Virus record (IMG/VR): IMGVR_UViG_3300027917_000021
Coordinates: 91,896-155,895 of that record
From: a virus
DNA length: 64,000 bases
Direction: 5' to 3' (one strand)
The position numbers and the translations under genes are program-made. The notes under the pieces were generated by a model. It was not told the origin of the DNA. It saw nothing but the letters and a program-made list of their open reading frames with translations, and ran no database searches. Each line of letters begins with the position of its first letter. Within the stretch, counting starts at the first letter, position 1. Of the stretch, positions 11,692-19,411 are shown piece by piece.

Positions 11692-12390
11692 CTTTACATC
11701 CCCTTGTCTTCGGCAGTTAATTTTAATTTGAAGATGCTTATTTTTTCTAATTTGTTAGTCGTTGCAACTAACGAAGTATTCTGTTTTATCTACAGCTCAC
11801 ATCGCAAGGCGGCACAGCTGGGAATATTTCCCAGCTGGTGCTTGCTATTTATCCGCCGGACTAGAGCGGTTACAAATAAACTCGGAGATTTATCTCCGAG
11901 TTTTTTGGAATGCGATTGCTCGGCGGATAAAATGAGATGTTCTGGCAAAACGAAACGTCATGCTCATCTCTTCTAGAAATATTTAACTAATACTCCTAGA
12001 AGAAACGAGCGGGGGACGCCACCCCGATGCATCTCATTTCTTCTGCTTCGACGACGATCGCGTCTCTCTCGGGCTCCAGCCGCCAGAAACCTGGATCCGG
12101 ATCCGAGCGTGCGCGCGACGGCCGCCTTGCATGGTCCCACTGGCCGGCGTACCCCAGGCGCCCTAGGCGCCCGCGGTCCTGAAGGGGGGTACCTTCACGT
12201 GGCAGCCCGTCGACTGGAATCAGGGCACAGTACTCTCGCGCATGCACTGCAGCAGGCCTTAGGCGCTGCAGCTGGCCGCACGTTGTCTCTGGTCGCCTGG
12301 TCGGGGACGGTTTTGTTGTAACGGAGACAGGGACGTCAGAGTTACAACAAATAGAGCCTTAAACGAAAGACGAGACGTCTCTCTAGGCTC
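11676..12390 (-). ncRNA. Large, elaborately structured non-coding RNA candidate (about 700 nt)
   Basis: No credible gene lies here, yet inverted repeats are dense: GAGCTGTA 11684-11691 with 11791-11798; CAGCTGGGAA with TTCCCAGCTG around 11815-11837; TTATCCGCCG 11849-11858 with 11921-11930 enclosing CTCGGAGAT/ATCTCCGAG; an 11-pair helix 11999-12009 with 12033-12043; GTACCCC with GGGGTAC near 12150/12188; CTGCAGC with GCTGCAG near 12250/12270; TTGTTGTAAC 12313-12322 with 12341-12350; GAGCCT 12354-12359 with 12385-12390. The middle, 12000-12310, is far more GC-rich than the phage. The 11-pair helix has a G-U wobble only if read on the minus strand, and a run of eight U follows the last minus-strand helix. 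Both favour minus-strand transcription. GOLLD and ROOL RNAs of phages have this size and style; assignment to either is not established. Confidence 0.7.
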
Positions 12391-12403
12391 AGGCAGGAGC
12401 AAG

Positions 12404-12598
12404 TTACTCCTTTGCGTCAATTGTTTCTTTCGAAACAGGCGTTTCTGCTTTTGCCGCCTGTCTTTTTAATTTACGTTGTTTGGCCTTTTCCATCTTCATT
12501 TCATAGCGAAATTTTTTTTGTTCTTTATTTTTTTCTCGACGATGTTCCAATTTGTATGCTTCGCACTTCTTTTTATTCCTGCCTTGTTTTTTGCCCAT
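12404..12598 (-). CDS. Very small, highly basic protein, possible RNA binder
   Basis: A 64-residue protein; about a third of the first 45 residues are Lys or Arg and the rest mostly polar helix formers. Start ATG is preceded by AGGAAAGG. The stop lies directly upstream of the large structured RNA and the gene follows the tRNA-like RNA at 12621-12844. The composition resembles ribosomal-protein-like or nucleic-acid-binding tails. RNA binding is inferred from charge and position. Confidence 0.55.
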   Translation of the reverse strand: MGKKQGRNKKKCEAYKLEHRREKNKEQKKFRYEMKMEKAKQRKLKRQAAKAETPVSKETIDAKE

Positions 12599-13030: not shown

Positions 13031-13696
13031 TTATTCTTCATCTTTTTTATTAATAATGATGTCTGGTGTATTCGGATCATAAAAATTATTAAGCTGTGTA
13101 ATTCCAGACCGCCTTGCGTCAAAATATTTTGCAAATCCTTCTGCAGTTGCCGCGTAGGCTTCAGCGCGTCCGGCATTAGAACTTGTATATGAAAATGTGT
13201 TATTTGTAACAAAGTTTAATTCTTGTTTATCTTCTAGTCCTTCAATTCCTTGAAATACAAATGTCCAATTTCCCTTTTCTTCCCTTTCCAAAATCATGTT
13301 ATTGATTTCGTCTCGAGAAAATATAGATGAGCTGTTTTCCCATCCGTCTGTAAATATATAAACTAATGCGGCATCATCATCTTTAATAACACCATCAATT
13401 AATTTTATTGCCTGACCAATGCCATCATACATAGGAATAGATCCAGATGGAACGTAGTTTTGATGATCGAGGTGTTTTGCTACCCTAGCATCCTCATTAA
13501 AATAAACTACTTCGCCCTCTCTATTACGAAATAATACTAGAGATACTTTTACTTTTCCAGCGAGTCTTGCCTTTTCAGCTCGCATTAAGTCAATTATTTC
13601 ATTTACTCCGGTGATTGTTGTTTCGATGTCGGCGCTCATGGAGCCACTTCCATCCAAAACTAAAGCGATATAAGTATCGCCTGCCACTTTTGCCAT
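13031..13696 (-). CDS. Stand-alone von Willebrand factor A domain protein
   Basis: A 221-residue protein that is essentially one vWA domain. The metal-ion-dependent adhesion site is intact: DGSGSMS at residues 15-21, a central SIPMYDG segment and FTDGWEN near residue 115. The domain binds a divalent metal and protein ligands. A strong AAAAGGAG site precedes the ATG. It lies directly downstream of the permuted tRNA-like RNA. Ro60-type RNA-binding proteins also contain a vWA domain, but their HEAT-repeat part is absent here. A Ro-like function is therefore a hypothesis based on position. Confidence 0.85.
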   Translation of the reverse strand: MAKVAGDTYIALVLDGSGSMSADIETTITGVNEIIDLMRAEKARLAGKVKVSLVLFRNREGEVVYFNEDARVAKHLDHQNYVPSGSIPMYDGIGQAIKLIDGVIKDDDAALVYIFTDGWENSSSIFSRDEINNMILEREEKGNWTFVFQGIEGLEDKQELNFVTNNTFSYTSSNAGRAEAYAATAEGFAKYFDARRSGITQLNNFYDPNTPDIIINKKDEE

Positions 13697-13716
13697 TAAA
13701 TTCTCCTTTTATAAAA

Positions 13717-13751
13717 AAGCGCGACTGCCCTACCCTGGGTATGCCGCGCTT
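13717..13751 (-). terminator. Terminator after the permuted tRNA-like RNA
   Basis: On the minus strand AAGCGCG (13751-13745) pairs with CGCGCTT (13723-13717), with a smaller ACCC/GGGT pairing inside, followed by a run of T. It would end the RNA transcript just before the vWA ribosome site, allowing some read-through into that gene. Confidence 0.75.
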
Positions 13752-13849
13752 ATAATGTATTCTTCAAAAATACAATGTGTTAGATTGTTCTATCCAAAGA
13801 ATGACTGCTTATGCCCTATAATGTAATTTCATCAACTTATTTTTTTAAT

Positions 13850-13886
13850 CTGAAACGTCCACGTCCTACCTCTGGACTACCGCGCC
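13850..13886 (-). tRNA. 5' half of the permuted tRNA (acceptor, D-arm, anticodon 5' side)
   Basis: Minus strand: acceptor GGCGCGG (13886-13880), TA, D-stem GTCC, D-loop AGAGGTA, GGAC, G26, then TGGAC and GTTTCAG (13856-13850). The D-loop has the expected A14, G18-G19 and A21. If GTTTCAG is the anticodon loop, the anticodon is UUC (glutamate). This half is found downstream of, not upstream of, its partner. Confidence 0.75.
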
Positions 13887-14123
13887 ATATAAGGATTTGG
13901 ATGTCACTGTCCTTTACAAACTGTCAACTATGTTTGTCGCGCGAATCCTGGCTACGCGAGTTTTGTAATGAAACCAACATGAAGGTTTTCGCACAGAGCA
14001 AACCTACAAATACTGACTACTGTCTCGTCGTAGCCACCGTTATCATGTAAGAGTGATAACCTCCTCTCATTGCGTAGAGATCCCGGTTTTTGTTAAAGGT
14101 GGTATTCTCCATCTTGTGACTTG

Positions 14124-14157
14124 AGGCGCGGAAGGGAATCGAACCCCTGCTTTGGAG
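14124..14157 (-). tRNA. 3' half of the permuted tRNA (variable loop, T-arm, acceptor)
   Basis: Minus strand: CTCCA (14157-14153), variable AAGC, T-stem AGGGG, T-loop TTCGATT (14143-14137), CCCTT, acceptor CCGCGCC (14131-14125) and T at the discriminator. All seven acceptor pairs match the 5' half at 13886-13880. TCCA pairs with TGGA of the other half, while positions 31 and 39 would be a C-C mismatch. CCA is not encoded. Confidence 0.78.
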
Positions 14158-14346
14158 GAATATAAAATAAGCGATTACTTTCGGGCGTGTGGCAGTATAA
14201 ATCTGGACACAATAAGCTAAGTTTGAATCGAATTACACTCCGTTCTCCCAATAGAGGGCCATTGCTACAATTATGTAACAATGGCGATTAGGATACTGGT
14301 AAGATACGATGTATGAGTCTAAGTCTTAGCGTGAGTCTAGTGTCGT

Positions 14347-15114
14347 TTATACTGATAAACCACCATGTAAAATATTACCTGTTATTATTTTACCAAGTTT
14401 TTCGTCTTCAACGATCTTGGCATTATTGGCTCTTTGGCGAGCATCTTTAACCGCCAATTCCCATTTATCATGACGAGAAAGAATTTCTGATTTCATTTTA
14501 GGGGTAATGGCTCCAGATACTTTTGTCTCATTCCAAGTGCCGACTACCATATCTTCATGTACTAATTCGGTTTGTGCCGGGTGTTCTTTTGTTGCCTCAT
14601 ATTTTACTAGAACTTTCGGAACTTTTTTGGATTTGAATGTTTGGAGTGGATCGGTTTTGTAATAATTATTGTCCTTGTCCCATTTCCAATTAAACTTTGG
14701 GTCTAAGGTTGGAATTGACATCAACAATGATCTTAATTGTTTTAATTTGTTTTCCAAGCTTAGTAAAGACGTTGCATGTAAATTTTCTGCAATAGTATAT
14801 CCTTCATAAACCAAATTAGCAGTTGCCACTGCATTGGTTTCTTCTTTCACTATCGAATGATTGATAGCATCTGACAGAGCATCAAAATAATATGATATTT
14901 TTTCTTGCACAGTTGTTACCAAAGGCTCTGTCTCAGGAGGAAATTGTTCTCCACCCTCTTCTTTGGGCTGGTATACACGAAATCTGCCAGCGAAATGATG
15001 CTGTTTTTTGCCTAGCGTATTTTCTGCCTCTTTAGCCAAATTTCTTTCTTTTTCTTTAACATTTGGCTCTGCAGCAAGGTGCTGGTGTAGCTGAGTTTTA
15101 CTTTCTTCTGCCAT
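14347..15114 (-). CDS. Phage protein resembling the DUF7873 family
   Basis: A 255-residue charged protein. The segment HHFAGRFRVYQPKEEGGEQFPPE (about 39-61) resembles a conserved opening of a widespread actinophage family I recall as DUF7873, whose function is unknown. Residues 65-135 are helical, and the C-terminal third (KWELAVKDARQRANNAKI) ends in a long basic helix. The ATG is preceded by AAAGGAA. It sits between two structured RNA regions. The family assignment is from memory of the pattern and is moderate at best. Confidence 0.5.
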   Translation of the reverse strand: MAEESKTQLHQHLAAEPNVKEKERNLAKEAENTLGKKQHHFAGRFRVYQPKEEGGEQFPPETEPLVTTVQEKISYYFDALSDAINHSIVKEETNAVATANLVYEGYTIAENLHATSLLSLENKLKQLRSLLMSIPTLDPKFNWKWDKDNNYYKTDPLQTFKSKKVPKVLVKYEATKEHPAQTELVHEDMVVGTWNETKVSGAITPKMKSEILSRHDKWELAVKDARQRANNAKIVEDEKLGKIITGNILHGGLSV

Positions 15115-15819: not shown

Positions 15820-16376
15820 GAATGTGCTTCATAATCTGGTTTAGGGTCATAATCATAAATTTCCATAAGGCCAGCATGATTATACCAAATTGATGTTAAA
15901 TCAGGCCAATCTTGTTTTACTGAAGAAACATTTTTTGGTTTATCATCAATAAAAGCCACGGGATTTTCATACTCTCCAACTATCCTTGATTTATCCCTAT
16001 GTGATTTTGCAAACCTCAAATCGGCTTTTAAATCGTCAAGAATACCAAGATTATTTAGGTTTTTTACCCTTTTTTCTCTGTATGCTTCTGGCACTGTAGT
16101 ATTATATATTATTTTGAAGCGTTTGGATGACCATTCTAAAAATTGTTTGGCTCCTTTTATAAATGAAAGATTTTCAAATAAATCCGATTCCCAAGTTTTT
16201 ACTACAAGTTTATATACCTGTCTGCGACTATATCCTCTTGATTTTAAAAGATCCCATTGCTTAAAGTCATCTTCGTTTAGATCTATATTTTCGTTTTCTT
16301 TTAGTATGACGGCATAGGCTTTATCAAAAGAAAGAATACACCCGTCTACATCTAGAATGATAGGCCTTTTTTGCAT
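15774..16376 (-). CDS. HAD-superfamily phosphatase (5'-nucleotidase-like)
   Basis: A 200-residue HAD hydrolase. Motif I is ILDVDGCIL (nucleophile D9, D11), motif II is the Thr/Ser-containing IIYNTTVP near residue 93, and motif IV is VAFIDDKPKN near residue 143. The family removes phosphate from small substrates. The adjoining dNMP kinase and polymerase favour a nucleotide substrate. It overlaps the dNMP kinase gene by 25 bases. Confidence 0.72.
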   Translation of the reverse strand: MQKRPIILDVDGCILSFDKAYAVILKENENIDLNEDDFKQWDLLKSRGYSRRQVYKLVVKTWESDLFENLSFIKGAKQFLEWSSKRFKIIYNTTVPEAYREKRVKNLNNLGILDDLKADLRFAKSHRDKSRIVGEYENPVAFIDDKPKNVSSVKQDWPDLTSIWYNHAGLMEIYDYDPKPDYEAHSWSNVKKVLQKRNGQ

Positions 16377-17041: not shown

Positions 17042-17551
17042 TTATTTTTTCCAATGGTCTGCTACGTAAGCATCTACTTTCACTGGCGTATGTTTTATCC
17101 ATAATTGTGCAGCATCAACCATAAGTTTACTTAACATATTTTTTGCATCTTCTGCAATATTTTCTCTGGCTTCCAATAAAATTTCATCATGGATAGTACT
17201 AATGATTTTACAGTCATTGTCCCAACCACGCGCGATAATTTCATATTTAACCAGAGTTAATGCTTTCTTTGTAATACTGGCATTGCCGCTTTGCAAAGAC
17301 ATATTCTTTGCAATATTTGCTGCGTGTGCTCGTTGTTTTGGAAGTCTAAGATTAAAACCTTTAAGCCACCTTAGTCGGTTATCCATATAACATCTTACAC
17401 ATTCACTTTCTAAAGCTTCTGCAGCTCTAGCATCGAGGAATTCCCTTACTTTTGGAAATGCATGCCAGAACTTGGACAATAGCCTTTGGGCTTCATCGTA
17501 TTCAACTTCTAATTGGTTTGCTAGCCTTGTAGGACCAAGGCCATAAGCTAC
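17042..17551 (-). CDS. polA: DNA polymerase family A, C-terminal exon
   Basis: After intron removal this exon begins VAYGLGPTRLAN and completes motif B started in the other exon. Motif C is STIHDEILLEA near the end, holding the catalytic aspartate. An internal ATG seven codons upstream of the splice junction (17572) could start a free fragment but gives no useful protein alone. With exon 1 the spliced product is about 611 residues: 3'-5' exonuclease plus polymerase, a common phage PolA layout without the 5' nuclease. Confidence 0.88.
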   Translation of the reverse strand, partial: VAYGLGPTRLANQLEVEYDEAQRLLSKFWHAFPKVREFLDARAAEALESECVRCYMDNRLRWLKGFNLRLPKQRAHAANIAKNMSLQSGNASITKKALTLVKYEIIARGWDNDCKIISTIHDEILLEARENIAEDAKNMLSKLMVDAAQLWIKHTPVKVDAYVADHWKK

Positions 17552-18085
17552 CAGGTACCCCAATGTTTCCAATGGGCCTGGACTATCCCTTTATGTATCT
17601 ACCCGTAATTGGGTTGCGTGTGCAATGATGCTTTTGGTGACAACTTTTACACAATATTTCTAGATTTGATAGATCATTATTTGTTCTGTCTTTGTCTATA
17701 TGATGTGTTAATAAGTTATTCACTGAATCACAACGATTGCATTTTTTATCGTAGTGATCAAAAGCTCGTTTACTAAAATTTCTAATTCCATTTTTATACA
17801 TATGGTTTGTGGTGCCAAATTGATTACCACCACTACCAACACCAGGCTTAGATATAAATCCATGTTTCACTCTCCAATTGTAAGAGTGAAATGCTGATGA
17901 GCATTTTGTAGAACAAAATTTTCGTTTTCTTTTTGGCAATTCATTGCCACAACGCATACATACCGCTCGTCTAGCCTCTACACTTTCTCTTGCCAAAGAG
18001 CTTAGCTCGGGATTGCCATCACCATTATGTGTTAAGGTTTCCCCGAATTTGGGCGGTTTTATTTCGGCATAATTAGTTTTCATCT
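17552..18085 (-). other. Group I intron in the DNA polymerase gene (534 nt)
   Basis: The 5' exon ends TTCGGT and the intron holds GCCGAA (18068-18063), pairing six for six with a U-G wobble at the splice site, the signature of group I P1. Core blocks follow: AATCCCGAGCTAAGC (about 18013-17999), GAGGCTAGACG (around 17978-17966) and AAAGGGATAGTCC (17592-17580). GGCTA of the second pairs with TAGTC of the third as P7. The intron ends in G at 17552. Joining the exons there restores NFGVAYG, the exact spacing of polymerase motif B. It resembles the SPO1-type polymerase introns. Confidence 0.9.
17583..18083 (-). CDS. HNH homing endonuclease of the polymerase intron
   Basis: A 166-residue protein. 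It has a Cys4-type zinc cluster (CMRCGNELP...CSTKC, about residues 42-60) and an HNH nuclease domain at the C-terminus (CNRCDSVNNLLTHHIDKD, then NLEILCKSCHQKHH). The ATG is at the third base of the intron and overlaps the polymerase exon-1 stop (ATGA). The stop codon lies inside the P7 strand of the ribozyme, so nearly all the intron is both coding and catalytic RNA. It would cut intronless polymerase alleles to spread the intron. Confidence 0.9.
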   Translation of the reverse strand: MKTNYAEIKPPKFGETLTHNGDGNPELSSLARESVEARRAVCMRCGNELPKRKRKFCSTKCSSAFHSYNWRVKHGFISKPGVGSGGNQFGTTNHMYKNGIRNFSKRAFDHYDKKCNRCDSVNNLLTHHIDKDRTNNDLSNLEILCKSCHQKHHCTRNPITGRYIKG

Positions 18086-19411
18086 ACCGAAGTTAATATT
18101 TTTTCCGATTGGTCTTAGATCAGCATTGACATCTTCAGTTGCTACTTTAACAATTCCTTTATCTAAATACTTATCGCCTTTACGGATAACAAGTTTATCT
18201 TGAATCATTGTAGCAACGTGTCCATGTGCATCCAGTCCCAAATCAAATATCTTTTTGAATTCTGGGTCTTCTGAGAATTCCGCAAGTAATACTAATTCCA
18301 TGCCAGCGTAGTCGGCACCTACAATTTTCCATCCTTTTTCTGCAGTGAATGCCGCACGATAATTAGTATCACGTGGAATATTTTGTGCATTTGGCTCGCG
18401 ACTAGAGTAACGACCGGAGTCAGTGCCACCTACTTGTACAAATGTAGGATGTATTCTTCCGGTTTTTGGATGTACGTGTTCTTTATAAAAACCTGTGCCG
18501 TACGTTGTTACGCGTTTTTCATATTCCCGATATTTAAGTAATGCCCTTACAGCAGGATGTACAATACGTTCAAGGACCTCTTTGCCAGTCCCAGGAATAC
18601 TATGCCCAAGAATTTGTTCTAATAATGGTTTTAATTGTACATGAGAATTATAATTTACAATTGGATCTCCAAATAAATCCTTTTCACAATGTTGCAAAAA
18701 ATGTTTATCCAATTCCTGTTTTTTAAGCAAACTTTCTTTTTTGGCAGTTGCTTCTAATGCACTCCATTTTGCAAAATCAAGATGCAGGCCATTAAGTTCC
18801 ATATCACCGGTGACAGAAATTACCTCACATTCTAAATTATATACAGAGTCTAATTTCAAATCAACAATATCAAGGACAAGTACTTTGTGTAATTTATGTA
18901 AATAGGCCACATCATCGGCTGCATATTTTATTTGCTCGTCTGTAAAAGGGCCTTTGTGGTTTTCAAATGTTTGTCTAACTGATTTTGACAAATCAGCTAA
19001 ATTATAATCATGAGTTAAATCATCTAATCCGAAACCTTTCTTTTGTAGTCCGGCCCGAATTAATTGTGCAGCGATCATTGTATCTTTTAGATAAAGAAGT
19101 TCTATTCCAAGAGACTGCTTTATCATTTTATAATCAAATTTTGCATTATGCAGAATAAAAACTTGTTGTGGATGTTCCATAACAGTTTTAAATTCTGATA
19201 ATAATTCAGGAAATGTTCCTAATGTTTTTTGTACGTCTATAACCGCCTGGTTGCCTTGTTCAGTGCCAAGCTGTATTAATAATAATTTCGAAGTGAATGG
19301 GTCTAGTCCGGTAGTCTCTGTGTCAAGAGCTAGTGGGGCATTATCCAAACGTCTAATTGCTTCCAGCAAATCAGTGAAAGCATCCTTGGTGTCTATAAAT
19401 AAAACGCTCAT
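18086..19411 (-). CDS. polA: DNA polymerase family A, N-terminal exon (exonuclease and palm/fingers)
   Basis: 442 coding residues before the splice site. A DnaQ-like 3'-5' exonuclease occupies about 1-190: LALDTETTGLD is Exo I, ILHNAKFDYKM is Exo II, and YAADDVAYLHKL is Exo III. The polymerase domain then begins; TDSGRYSSREPNAQNIPR leads into motif A VGADYAGMELVLLAEFS. The exon ends inside motif B (RPIGKNINFG). Unspliced, the frame reads Arg-stop into the intron. With no other polymerase seen here it is probably the replicative enzyme. Confidence 0.9.

What the first reader, a model, noticed from the sequence alone, without database searches (positions are those of the whole stretch)
13813..14186. 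Permuted tRNA inside a structured RNA, next to a lone vWA gene
Seen: the T-arm half (14124-14157) precedes the D-arm half (13850-13886) on the minus strand. All seven acceptor pairs match, and so do four anticodon-stem pairs. Three further helices join the outer flanks, and a 237-nt folded spacer links the acceptor ends. The next gene downstream is a stand-alone vWA protein. Known: circularly permuted tRNAs are described in algae and archaea, and bacterial Y RNAs carry tRNA mimics and are bound by Ro proteins, which contain a vWA domain. Inference: this is either a permuted tRNA that is rejoined (anticodon probably UUC) or a phage Y-RNA-like tRNA mimic served by the vWA protein.
Basis: partly seen in the sequence, partly recalled or inferred. 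Interest (0 to 1): 0.88.

Follow-up and report, generated by a model that had tools for sequence, protein, structure and literature searches.

The report
Permuted-tRNA RNA beside DUF7873 gene
Next to one uncharacterised protein gene (DUF7873), phages and many bacterial chromosomes carry an undescribed noncoding RNA that contains one or two tRNAs with their two halves in swapped order; the window holds the phage copy, and it looks like a dedicated tRNA-mimicking RNA rather than a tRNA gene.

Summary
On the minus strand at 14186-13813 a T-arm half (14157-14125) precedes a D-arm half (13886-13857). They share a perfect 7-bp acceptor stem, four anticodon-stem pairs and two flank helices. The upstream gene (14347-15114) is DUF7873 (PF25283). 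Permuted tRNA modules follow DUF7873 in 85 of 92 viral or phage loci and in 78 of 80 bacterial loci; 42 and 39 of these have two. On reversed strands the search found 1/92 and 0/80. Features not used to pick modules confirm a tRNA fold: tertiary pair 15-48 is G-C or A-U in 65/67 (33.5 expected with partners permuted), the anticodon stem is fully paired in 47/67 (6.9 expected).

It is not a decoding tRNA: no anticodon loop, isotype varies, an ordinary tRNA-Glu is present. It is not a Y RNA by test (Rfam YrlA below threshold, no Ro gene beside it) nor a tmRNA (no G3:U70). The vWA link is seen in two phages only. Likely model: tRNA-processing enzymes cut out the spacer, leaving a two- or three-piece tRNA-mimic RNA that serves DUF7873. 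Processing, binding and function are inferred.

The parts
14347..15114 (-). DUF7873 protein gene (255 aa), the conserved neighbour and presumed protein partner
   Evidence: Pfam PF25283 E=1.6e-73; the RNA follows this gene in 85/92 viral and 78/80 bacterial loci; AF2 model pLDDT 85, no fold match in PDB or BFVD at E<=0.001
14314..14351 (-). TATAAA box overlapping the DUF7873 stop codon and conserved start of the RNA (GACACTAGACTCA.GCTAAGACT.AGACT); possible late-type promoter (inference)
   Evidence: near-identical in L002; sigma-70 consensus scan found no promoter above chance
14195..14215 (-). conserved central element TTATTGTGTCCAGATTTATAC, counterpart of TTATTGCTCTA...TTAG in other family members
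   Evidence: alignment with L002 and by-eye comparison
14183..14186 (-). P1 helix, 5' strand (GCCC)
   Evidence: C-G to U-A exchange in L002; flank duplexes -26.5 vs -17.05 kcal/mol with permuted partners
14164..14171 (-). P2 helix, 5' strand (CTTATTTT), preceded by the conserved loop AATCG (14176-14172)
   Evidence: GTTTGT/ACAAAC in L002
14153..14157 (-). anticodon-stem 3' strand (positions 39-43)
   Evidence: 4/4 inner pairs in 47 of 67 family modules vs 6.9 expected
14125..14148 (-). T arm (5-bp stem, TTCGATT loop) and acceptor 3' strand CCGCGCC
13887..14124 (-). 238-nt spacer between the acceptor ends, starting TCAA (position 73 onward); presumed to be cut out
   Evidence: spacer length varies 5-294 nt across the family; 24 nt in L002
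13863..13886 (-). acceptor 5' strand GGCGCGG, U8, D arm with A14, G18G19, A21
   Evidence: Levitt pair 15-48 kept
13857..13861 (-). anticodon-stem 5' strand (positions 27-31)
13844..13856 (-). conserved internal loop GTTTCAGATTAAA, where an anticodon loop would be
   Evidence: near-identical in L002; similar ...AGACTGA... in other members
13836..13843 (-). P2 helix, 3' strand (AAAATAAG)
13813..13816 (-). P1 helix, 3' strand (GGGC)
13713..13750 (-). GC-rich hairpin plus T run, presumed terminator of the RNA; conserved in L002
   Evidence: sequence; the automatic terminator scan did not list it (loop larger than its limit)
13031..13696 (-). stand-alone vWA protein gene (221 aa); next gene, probably not part of the system
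   Evidence: Pfam VWA E=1.6e-6; next to the RNA only here and in L002

Best explanation
This is a member of an undescribed noncoding RNA family that travels with the DUF7873 protein gene. The RNA carries one (here) or two tRNA bodies whose T-arm half is transcribed before the D-arm half. The tRNA sits at the end of a long stem built from the outer flanks (P1, conserved loop, P2, conserved loop, anticodon stem), so it has no anticodon loop and cannot decode. Shown: the conserved pairing, the tRNA tertiary signature, the linkage to DUF7873. Inferred: host tRNA enzymes (RNase P at the 5' acceptor strand; 3'-end trimming and CCA addition) remove the spacer, giving a two-piece RNA (three-piece with two modules) held by base pairing, as in two-piece tmRNA. 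Inferred: DUF7873 binds this RNA, and the particle uses the real-looking tRNA acceptor and elbow to engage something that recognises tRNA (ribosome, EF-Tu, a synthetase, or a tRNA-attacking enzyme for which it would be a decoy).
For: Linkage: modules follow DUF7873 in 85/92 viral regions (42 with two) and 78/80 bacterial regions (39 with two). Controls: shuffles 6/1840 (strict scan) and 0/920 (3-bp D-stem scan), reverse strand 1/92 and 0/80, upstream 7/88 and 1/77. DUF7873 occurs in exactly the three of 25 related phage records that have this RNA. tRNA fold from unselected features: nearest T-arm/D-arm couples have >=6/7 acceptor pairs in 40/44 vs 5.0 permuted; anticodon stem 47/67 vs 6.9; Levitt pair 65/67 vs 33.5 and 64/66 in bacteria; covariation score 0.83 vs 0.24 shuffled and at most 0.24 slid. 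Flank helices: -26.5 vs -17.05 kcal/mol, sd 0.55. Processing signs: C at position 74 in 63/67, CCA in 36/67, U at -1 in 43/67 against 24% background; acceptor exactly 7 bp with 73:-1 pairing depleted in bacteria (25 vs 49.8); long insertions sit in the spacer. Not decoding: tRNA type varies; ordinary tRNA-Glu present.
Against: No transcript, processing or binding data. In bacteria the spacer is usually 6-7 nt, which could also be a capped hairpin loop left uncut. Only 20/116 bacterial spacers begin N-CCA. Seven viral and two bacterial regions gave no module (some truncated or divergent). The window phage has TCAA, not TCCA. DUF7873 has no recognisable RNA-binding fold. My scanner requires acceptor pairing, so module counts alone are selected; the unselected tests carry the argument.
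Confidence: 0.62

Rival explanations
1. Divergent Y RNA: the RNA descends from YrlA, keeps a closed (uncut) acceptor hairpin, and DUF7873 has replaced Ro as the binding protein.
For: Same order T-arm, acceptor, D-arm on a stem with internal loops; Rfam YrlA gives 29-38 bits on six family members and 34 bits on a separate RNA beside a Ro-like gene in the same phage. Bacterial spacers are mostly 6-7 nt.
Against: Scores are about half the 69-bit threshold and not far above junctions of ordinary tandem tRNAs (up to 28.9 bits). No TROVE gene in 25 records. The Ro-linked RNA of phage Chaser has a long capped acceptor stem, whereas here it is exactly 7 bp followed by N-C and preceded by U. Two modules per RNA are common.
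Confidence: 0.22
2. Circularly permuted tRNA gene: the halves are spliced or ligated at the anticodon (the phage has RtcB) to give a working tRNA.
For: Correct gene order; RtcB in G000 and G001; the window module looks like tRNA-Glu with UUC in place.
Against: The 'anticodon' region is a conserved internal loop with a similar motif in modules of different tRNA type; ordinary tRNA-Glu is encoded; joining would give a poor loop with a 31:39 C-C mismatch; no group I or other intron core found.
Confidence: 0.05
3. Permuted tmRNA or tag-less tmRNA relative.
For: Same order T-half, CCA, spacer, D-half; weak Rfam hits to permuted and beta tmRNA models. Permuted tmRNA is a two-piece RNA cut by tRNA enzymes (PMC11915505).
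Against: The alanine identity pair G3:U70 is seen in at most 2 of 67 modules; a full D stem is present; no conserved tag frame between the two close relatives (read by eye); two modules common; phage Phendrix has a separate tmRNA.
Confidence: 0.05
4. Chance or decayed tandem tRNA genes.
For: The RNA lies in tRNA-rich parts of several phages.
Against: All unselected tests above; shuffles and the other strand are near zero; the same arrangement recurs in bacterial chromosomes.
Confidence: 0.01

Closest known systems
YrlA, bacterial Y RNA (Rfam RF02553)
   Same: tRNA-like domain with T-arm, acceptor, D-arm order, mounted on a stem with internal loops formed by the RNA ends
   Different: below family threshold; no Ro/TROVE gene at the locus; acceptor exactly 7 bp with tRNA-like 3' tail and variable spacer; often two modules; DUF7873 as neighbour
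Permuted two-piece tmRNA (Rfam RF04321)
   Same: T-half, 3' tail, intervening sequence, D-half; flanks pair to extend the anticodon-side stem
   Different: no G3:U70, complete D arm, no tag reading frame found, not the SmpB locus, often two modules
Circularly permuted tRNA genes of algae and archaea
   Same: 3' half encoded before 5' half with a spacer joining the acceptor ends
   Different: no decoding loop; conserved motif where the anticodon would be; tRNA type not conserved; bacterial and phage setting without the tRNA splicing endonuclease
tRNA-like decoy and mimic RNAs (for example the tag-less tmRNA of phage DS6A, cited in PMC11915505)
   Same: phage RNA that imitates part of a tRNA
   Different: here the tRNA is permuted, tied to a dedicated protein gene, and found in chromosomes too

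Membership tests
YrlA / bacterial Y RNA | reaches the curated score of RF02553 (69 bits) | tested here: not met
   29-38 bits on family members; no YrlA match within E<=10 for the window RNA; no gathering-score hit on 20 more loci
YrlA / bacterial Y RNA | encoded beside, or bound by, a Ro/TROVE protein | tested here: not met
   neighbour is DUF7873; PF05731 absent from G000 and 24 related records; a Ro-like DUF2828/DUF7788 gene lies elsewhere in the phage with its own YrlA-like RNA; binding itself not testable here
YrlA / bacterial Y RNA | permuted tRNA-like domain on a stem with internal loops | tested here: met
tmRNA (permuted form) | G3:U70 pair for alanine charging | tested here: not met
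   window C3:G70; 2 of 67 modules G:U
tmRNA (permuted form) | tag reading frame | tested here: not met
   no frame conserved between window and L002 downstream of the D-half (sequences, read by eye)
tmRNA (permuted form) | transcript cut into two pieces by tRNA enzymes | not testable with these tools
   only sequence hints: C74, CCA, U-1, G1
circularly permuted tRNA gene | halves rejoin to a tRNA with a 7-nt anticodon loop | tested here: not met
   no such loop forms without a mismatch in the window; conserved non-anticodon motif in the family
permuted group I intron-exon arrangement | group I intron core in the flanks | tested here: inconclusive
   no intron family hit in place; the rearranged order could not be submitted to the Rfam tool

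The most novel reading that the evidence does not exclude
A widespread bacterial and phage ribonucleoprotein: DUF7873 with a two- or three-piece RNA displaying one or two genuine tRNA acceptor ends but no anticodons, a third kind of permuted tRNA-like RNA next to tmRNA and Y RNA, acting on translation or on tRNA-targeting enzymes.
Probability: 0.55. Interest if true: 0.95.

Novelty: categorically new. Interest (0 to 1): 0.9.

Why it matters
Hundreds of loci in Actinomycetota, Myxococcota, Planctomycetota, Chloroflexota, cyanobacteria and diverse phages carry DUF7873, and nearly all those examined have an RNA behind it that no Rfam family covers and that ordinary tRNA finders miss. It shows that permuting a tRNA is a recurrent way to mount a tRNA body on another RNA, and it gives an otherwise uncharacterised protein family a probable RNA partner. 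Simple experiments (northern blot, RNase P cleavage, pull-down) can test it.

Tried and rejected
Permuted group I intron (PIE): no splice-site G or core motifs found near the halves, no Rfam intron hit. Permuted tmRNA: rejected on G3:U70 and lack of a tag. vWA as the partner: searches for the vWA protein show it next to the RNA in only two phages. RNA ligase: RtcB is in G000 and G001 but was not found in the G002 fragment. A first AF2 model with two sequences was poor; 35 sequences gave pLDDT 85, but neither PDB nor BFVD gave a credible fold match. Pattern scans for the D-half and for the Ro-linked RNA found only the one relative plus chance coding hits. A Microbacterium phage hit is an unusual tRNA in normal order. 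The A6 alignment was too diverse for the genome scan; A9 worked. Literature: no paper for DUF7873 in the held library; no description of phage permuted tRNAs found. The library lacks most subscription papers and preprints, so absence is weak evidence.

Full report
What is in the window. The minus strand between DUF7873 (14347-15114) and a vWA gene (13031-13696) holds a noncoding stretch. A normal-looking tRNA T-arm half lies upstream of a normal-looking D-arm half. Put together they make a tRNA body: 7/7 acceptor pairs, 5/5 T-stem pairs (one G-U), 4/4 D-stem pairs, 4 anticodon-stem pairs, U8, A14, G18G19, A21, a TTCGA loop and a 4-nt variable region. No tRNA finder or Rfam family reports it. 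The record is a 155,895-bp virus contig with 27 ordinary tRNAs, including tRNA-Glu(UUC).

First relative. A 169-kb phage (L002, handle G001) has the same gene order and the same RNA. The two RNAs differ by compensatory changes in the anticodon stem, D stem and P1. P2 also differs compensatorily once a one-base shift is allowed. Its spacer is 24 nt and begins TCCA. The window's 238-nt spacer is therefore an expansion between the two acceptor ends.

Other permuted tRNAs in the same phages. Using the tail-sheath protein I collected 22 related virus records and two named phages. A scan for T-half/D-half couples gave only three kinds of orphan hit: this RNA; a second RNA in G000 and G001; and an RNA in G002. 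The G002 RNA lies directly behind a DUF7873 gene, so it occupies the same position as the window RNA although its tRNA sequence is different. The second RNA lies behind a Ro60-like gene (DUF2828/DUF7788) and scores 34 bits with the Rfam YrlA model. It is a likely phage Y RNA, separate from the finding.

The general rule. DUF7873 genes in named phages of Gordonia, Rhodococcus, Arthrobacter, Rhizobium, Pseudanabaena, Klebsiella and Vibrio are all followed by a noncoding stretch with one or two permuted tRNAs. A profile scan of viral contigs gave 80 more loci. Modules are found downstream in 68/92 regions with a strict D stem and in 85/92 when 3-bp D stems are allowed. Controls: 6/1840 shuffled regions (strict scan), 0/920 shuffled regions (relaxed scan), 1/92 reverse strands, 7/88 upstream regions. 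A scan of bacterial genomes gave at least 489 relatives of DUF7873, and the best 80 were examined. They come from Nonomuraea, Nocardia, Actinomadura, Myxococcota, Planctomycetota, Chloroflexota, Acidobacteria and cyanobacteria. 78 of 80 have modules downstream, 39 have two, none on the reverse strand, 1 of 77 upstream. In a complete 9.5-Mb chromosome the locus sits between protein-kinase genes, not obviously in a prophage.

Evidence that the halves form one tRNA. The scanner asks for acceptor pairing, so I tested features it does not use. (1) Taking each good T-arm with the nearest D-arm, regardless of acceptor, 40 of 44 couples have at least 6 of 7 acceptor pairs; permuting partners gives 5.0 on average and 10 at most. 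(2) The anticodon stem is fully paired over four positions in 47 of 67 modules; permuted 6.9, at most 14. (3) The tertiary Levitt pair 15-48, which joins the D-half to the T-half in three dimensions, is G-C or A-U in 65 of 67; permuted 33.5, at most 49; in bacteria 64 of 66. (4) On 52 aligned modules every one of 21 pairs shows changes on both sides; covariation score 0.83 against 0.24 for shuffles. (5) The outer flanks pair: mean duplex energy -26.5 against -17.05 kcal/mol, standard deviation of the permuted means 0.55.

Architecture. From the outside in: P1, a conserved loop (downstream side TTAAAYG in 34 of 61, 0.8 expected), P2, an internal loop with a motif like CAGACTGA, the anticodon stem, the tRNA body. 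Two-module members have a first module, often with a leucine-type or similar D arm, upstream of a conserved TTATTGCTC element. The window and L002 have a hairpin where others have module 1 (read from the sequence).

What it is not. Not a decoding tRNA: where the anticodon loop should be there is a conserved internal loop. Not a tmRNA: no G3:U70 (2 of 67 at most), full D arm. Not a YrlA member by test: Rfam scores are about half the threshold and there is no TROVE gene. It may still share ancestry or working principle with Y RNAs; this is kept as the main rival.

How it probably works. Shown: structure, linkage, wide distribution. Suggested by sequence: position 74 is C in 63 of 67 viral modules and CCA follows in 36; the base before the 5' acceptor strand is U in 43 of 67 (background 24 percent); the acceptor is exactly seven pairs, with pairing of 73 to -1 avoided in bacteria (25 observed, 49.8 expected). 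These are features that RNase P and 3'-end enzymes read (general knowledge), and insertions up to 294 nt sit in the spacer. I infer that the spacer is cut out, as in permuted tmRNA, whose transcript is cut by tRNA enzymes into two pieces (PMC11915505). The product would be a particle with tRNA ends but no anticodon, held by DUF7873. The target is unknown. A competitive-inhibitor role has been suggested for the YrlA tRNA-like domain (PMC7790460) and would fit here, but nothing here tests it.

Why 'categorically new'. The building block (a permuted tRNA body on a stem) is known from YrlA and permuted tmRNA. The RNA as a whole, its one or two modules, its protein neighbour and its distribution match no known family, and membership in both nearest families was tested and not met. 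If the Y-RNA rival proves right, the rating should drop to a new variant of a known kind.

Limits. No expression data. Bacterial spacers of 6-7 nt could be uncut loops. The best-80 limits bias the sample towards the query. Literature coverage is partial.

Noticed in passing
L011 (G000:1-1606, outside the window) and L047:18300-19682 with L048:265-720 (G001): A Ro60-like protein gene (DUF2828/DUF7788) followed by a second permuted tRNA RNA that scores 34 bits with Rfam YrlA; its acceptor sequences differ strongly between the two phages yet stay complementary. Likely a phage Y RNA.
   Followed up: partly
G000:5963-6988 and G001:50137-51171: RtcB RNA ligase gene inside the tRNA cluster of both phages; G001 also has an RNA_ligase (PF09414) gene.
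   Followed up: partly
L147:3512-3591 (Klebsiella phage FBKp24): Annotated 'tRNA-Sup-TTA' overlaps T-half 2 of the two-module RNA and is probably a misannotation.
   Followed up: partly
G001 spacers (L052 ~16051-16075; L048 ~332-355): The spacers of the DUF7873-type and the Ro-type RNA in one phage are almost the same (CCA.GGTATGAACAyGTCACA); ordinary tRNAs of these phages often end N-C-TATGAA, so part may be a shared 3' trailer.
   Followed up: no
13713-13750: The terminator-like hairpin contains GCGCGGCATACCCAGGGTAGGGCAG, which resembles the D-half of the same RNA (GGCGCGGTAGTCCAGAGGTAGGACG) and could compete for the acceptor strand.
   Followed up: no
17042-19411: The family A DNA polymerase gene is split into two parts with an HNH-type ORF (17583-18083) between them, as in an intron or similar insertion; no Rfam intron hit.
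   Followed up: no
about 11750-12500: A G+C-rich stretch (0.54-0.58 in 500-base windows) in an otherwise 0.30-0.40 region, without an evident long gene.
   Followed up: no
L235:2574-2954 (Mycobacterium phage Chaser): Downstream of the Ro-like gene lies an RNA with a permuted tRNA domain whose acceptor stem is long and capped, as described for YrlA.
   Followed up: partly
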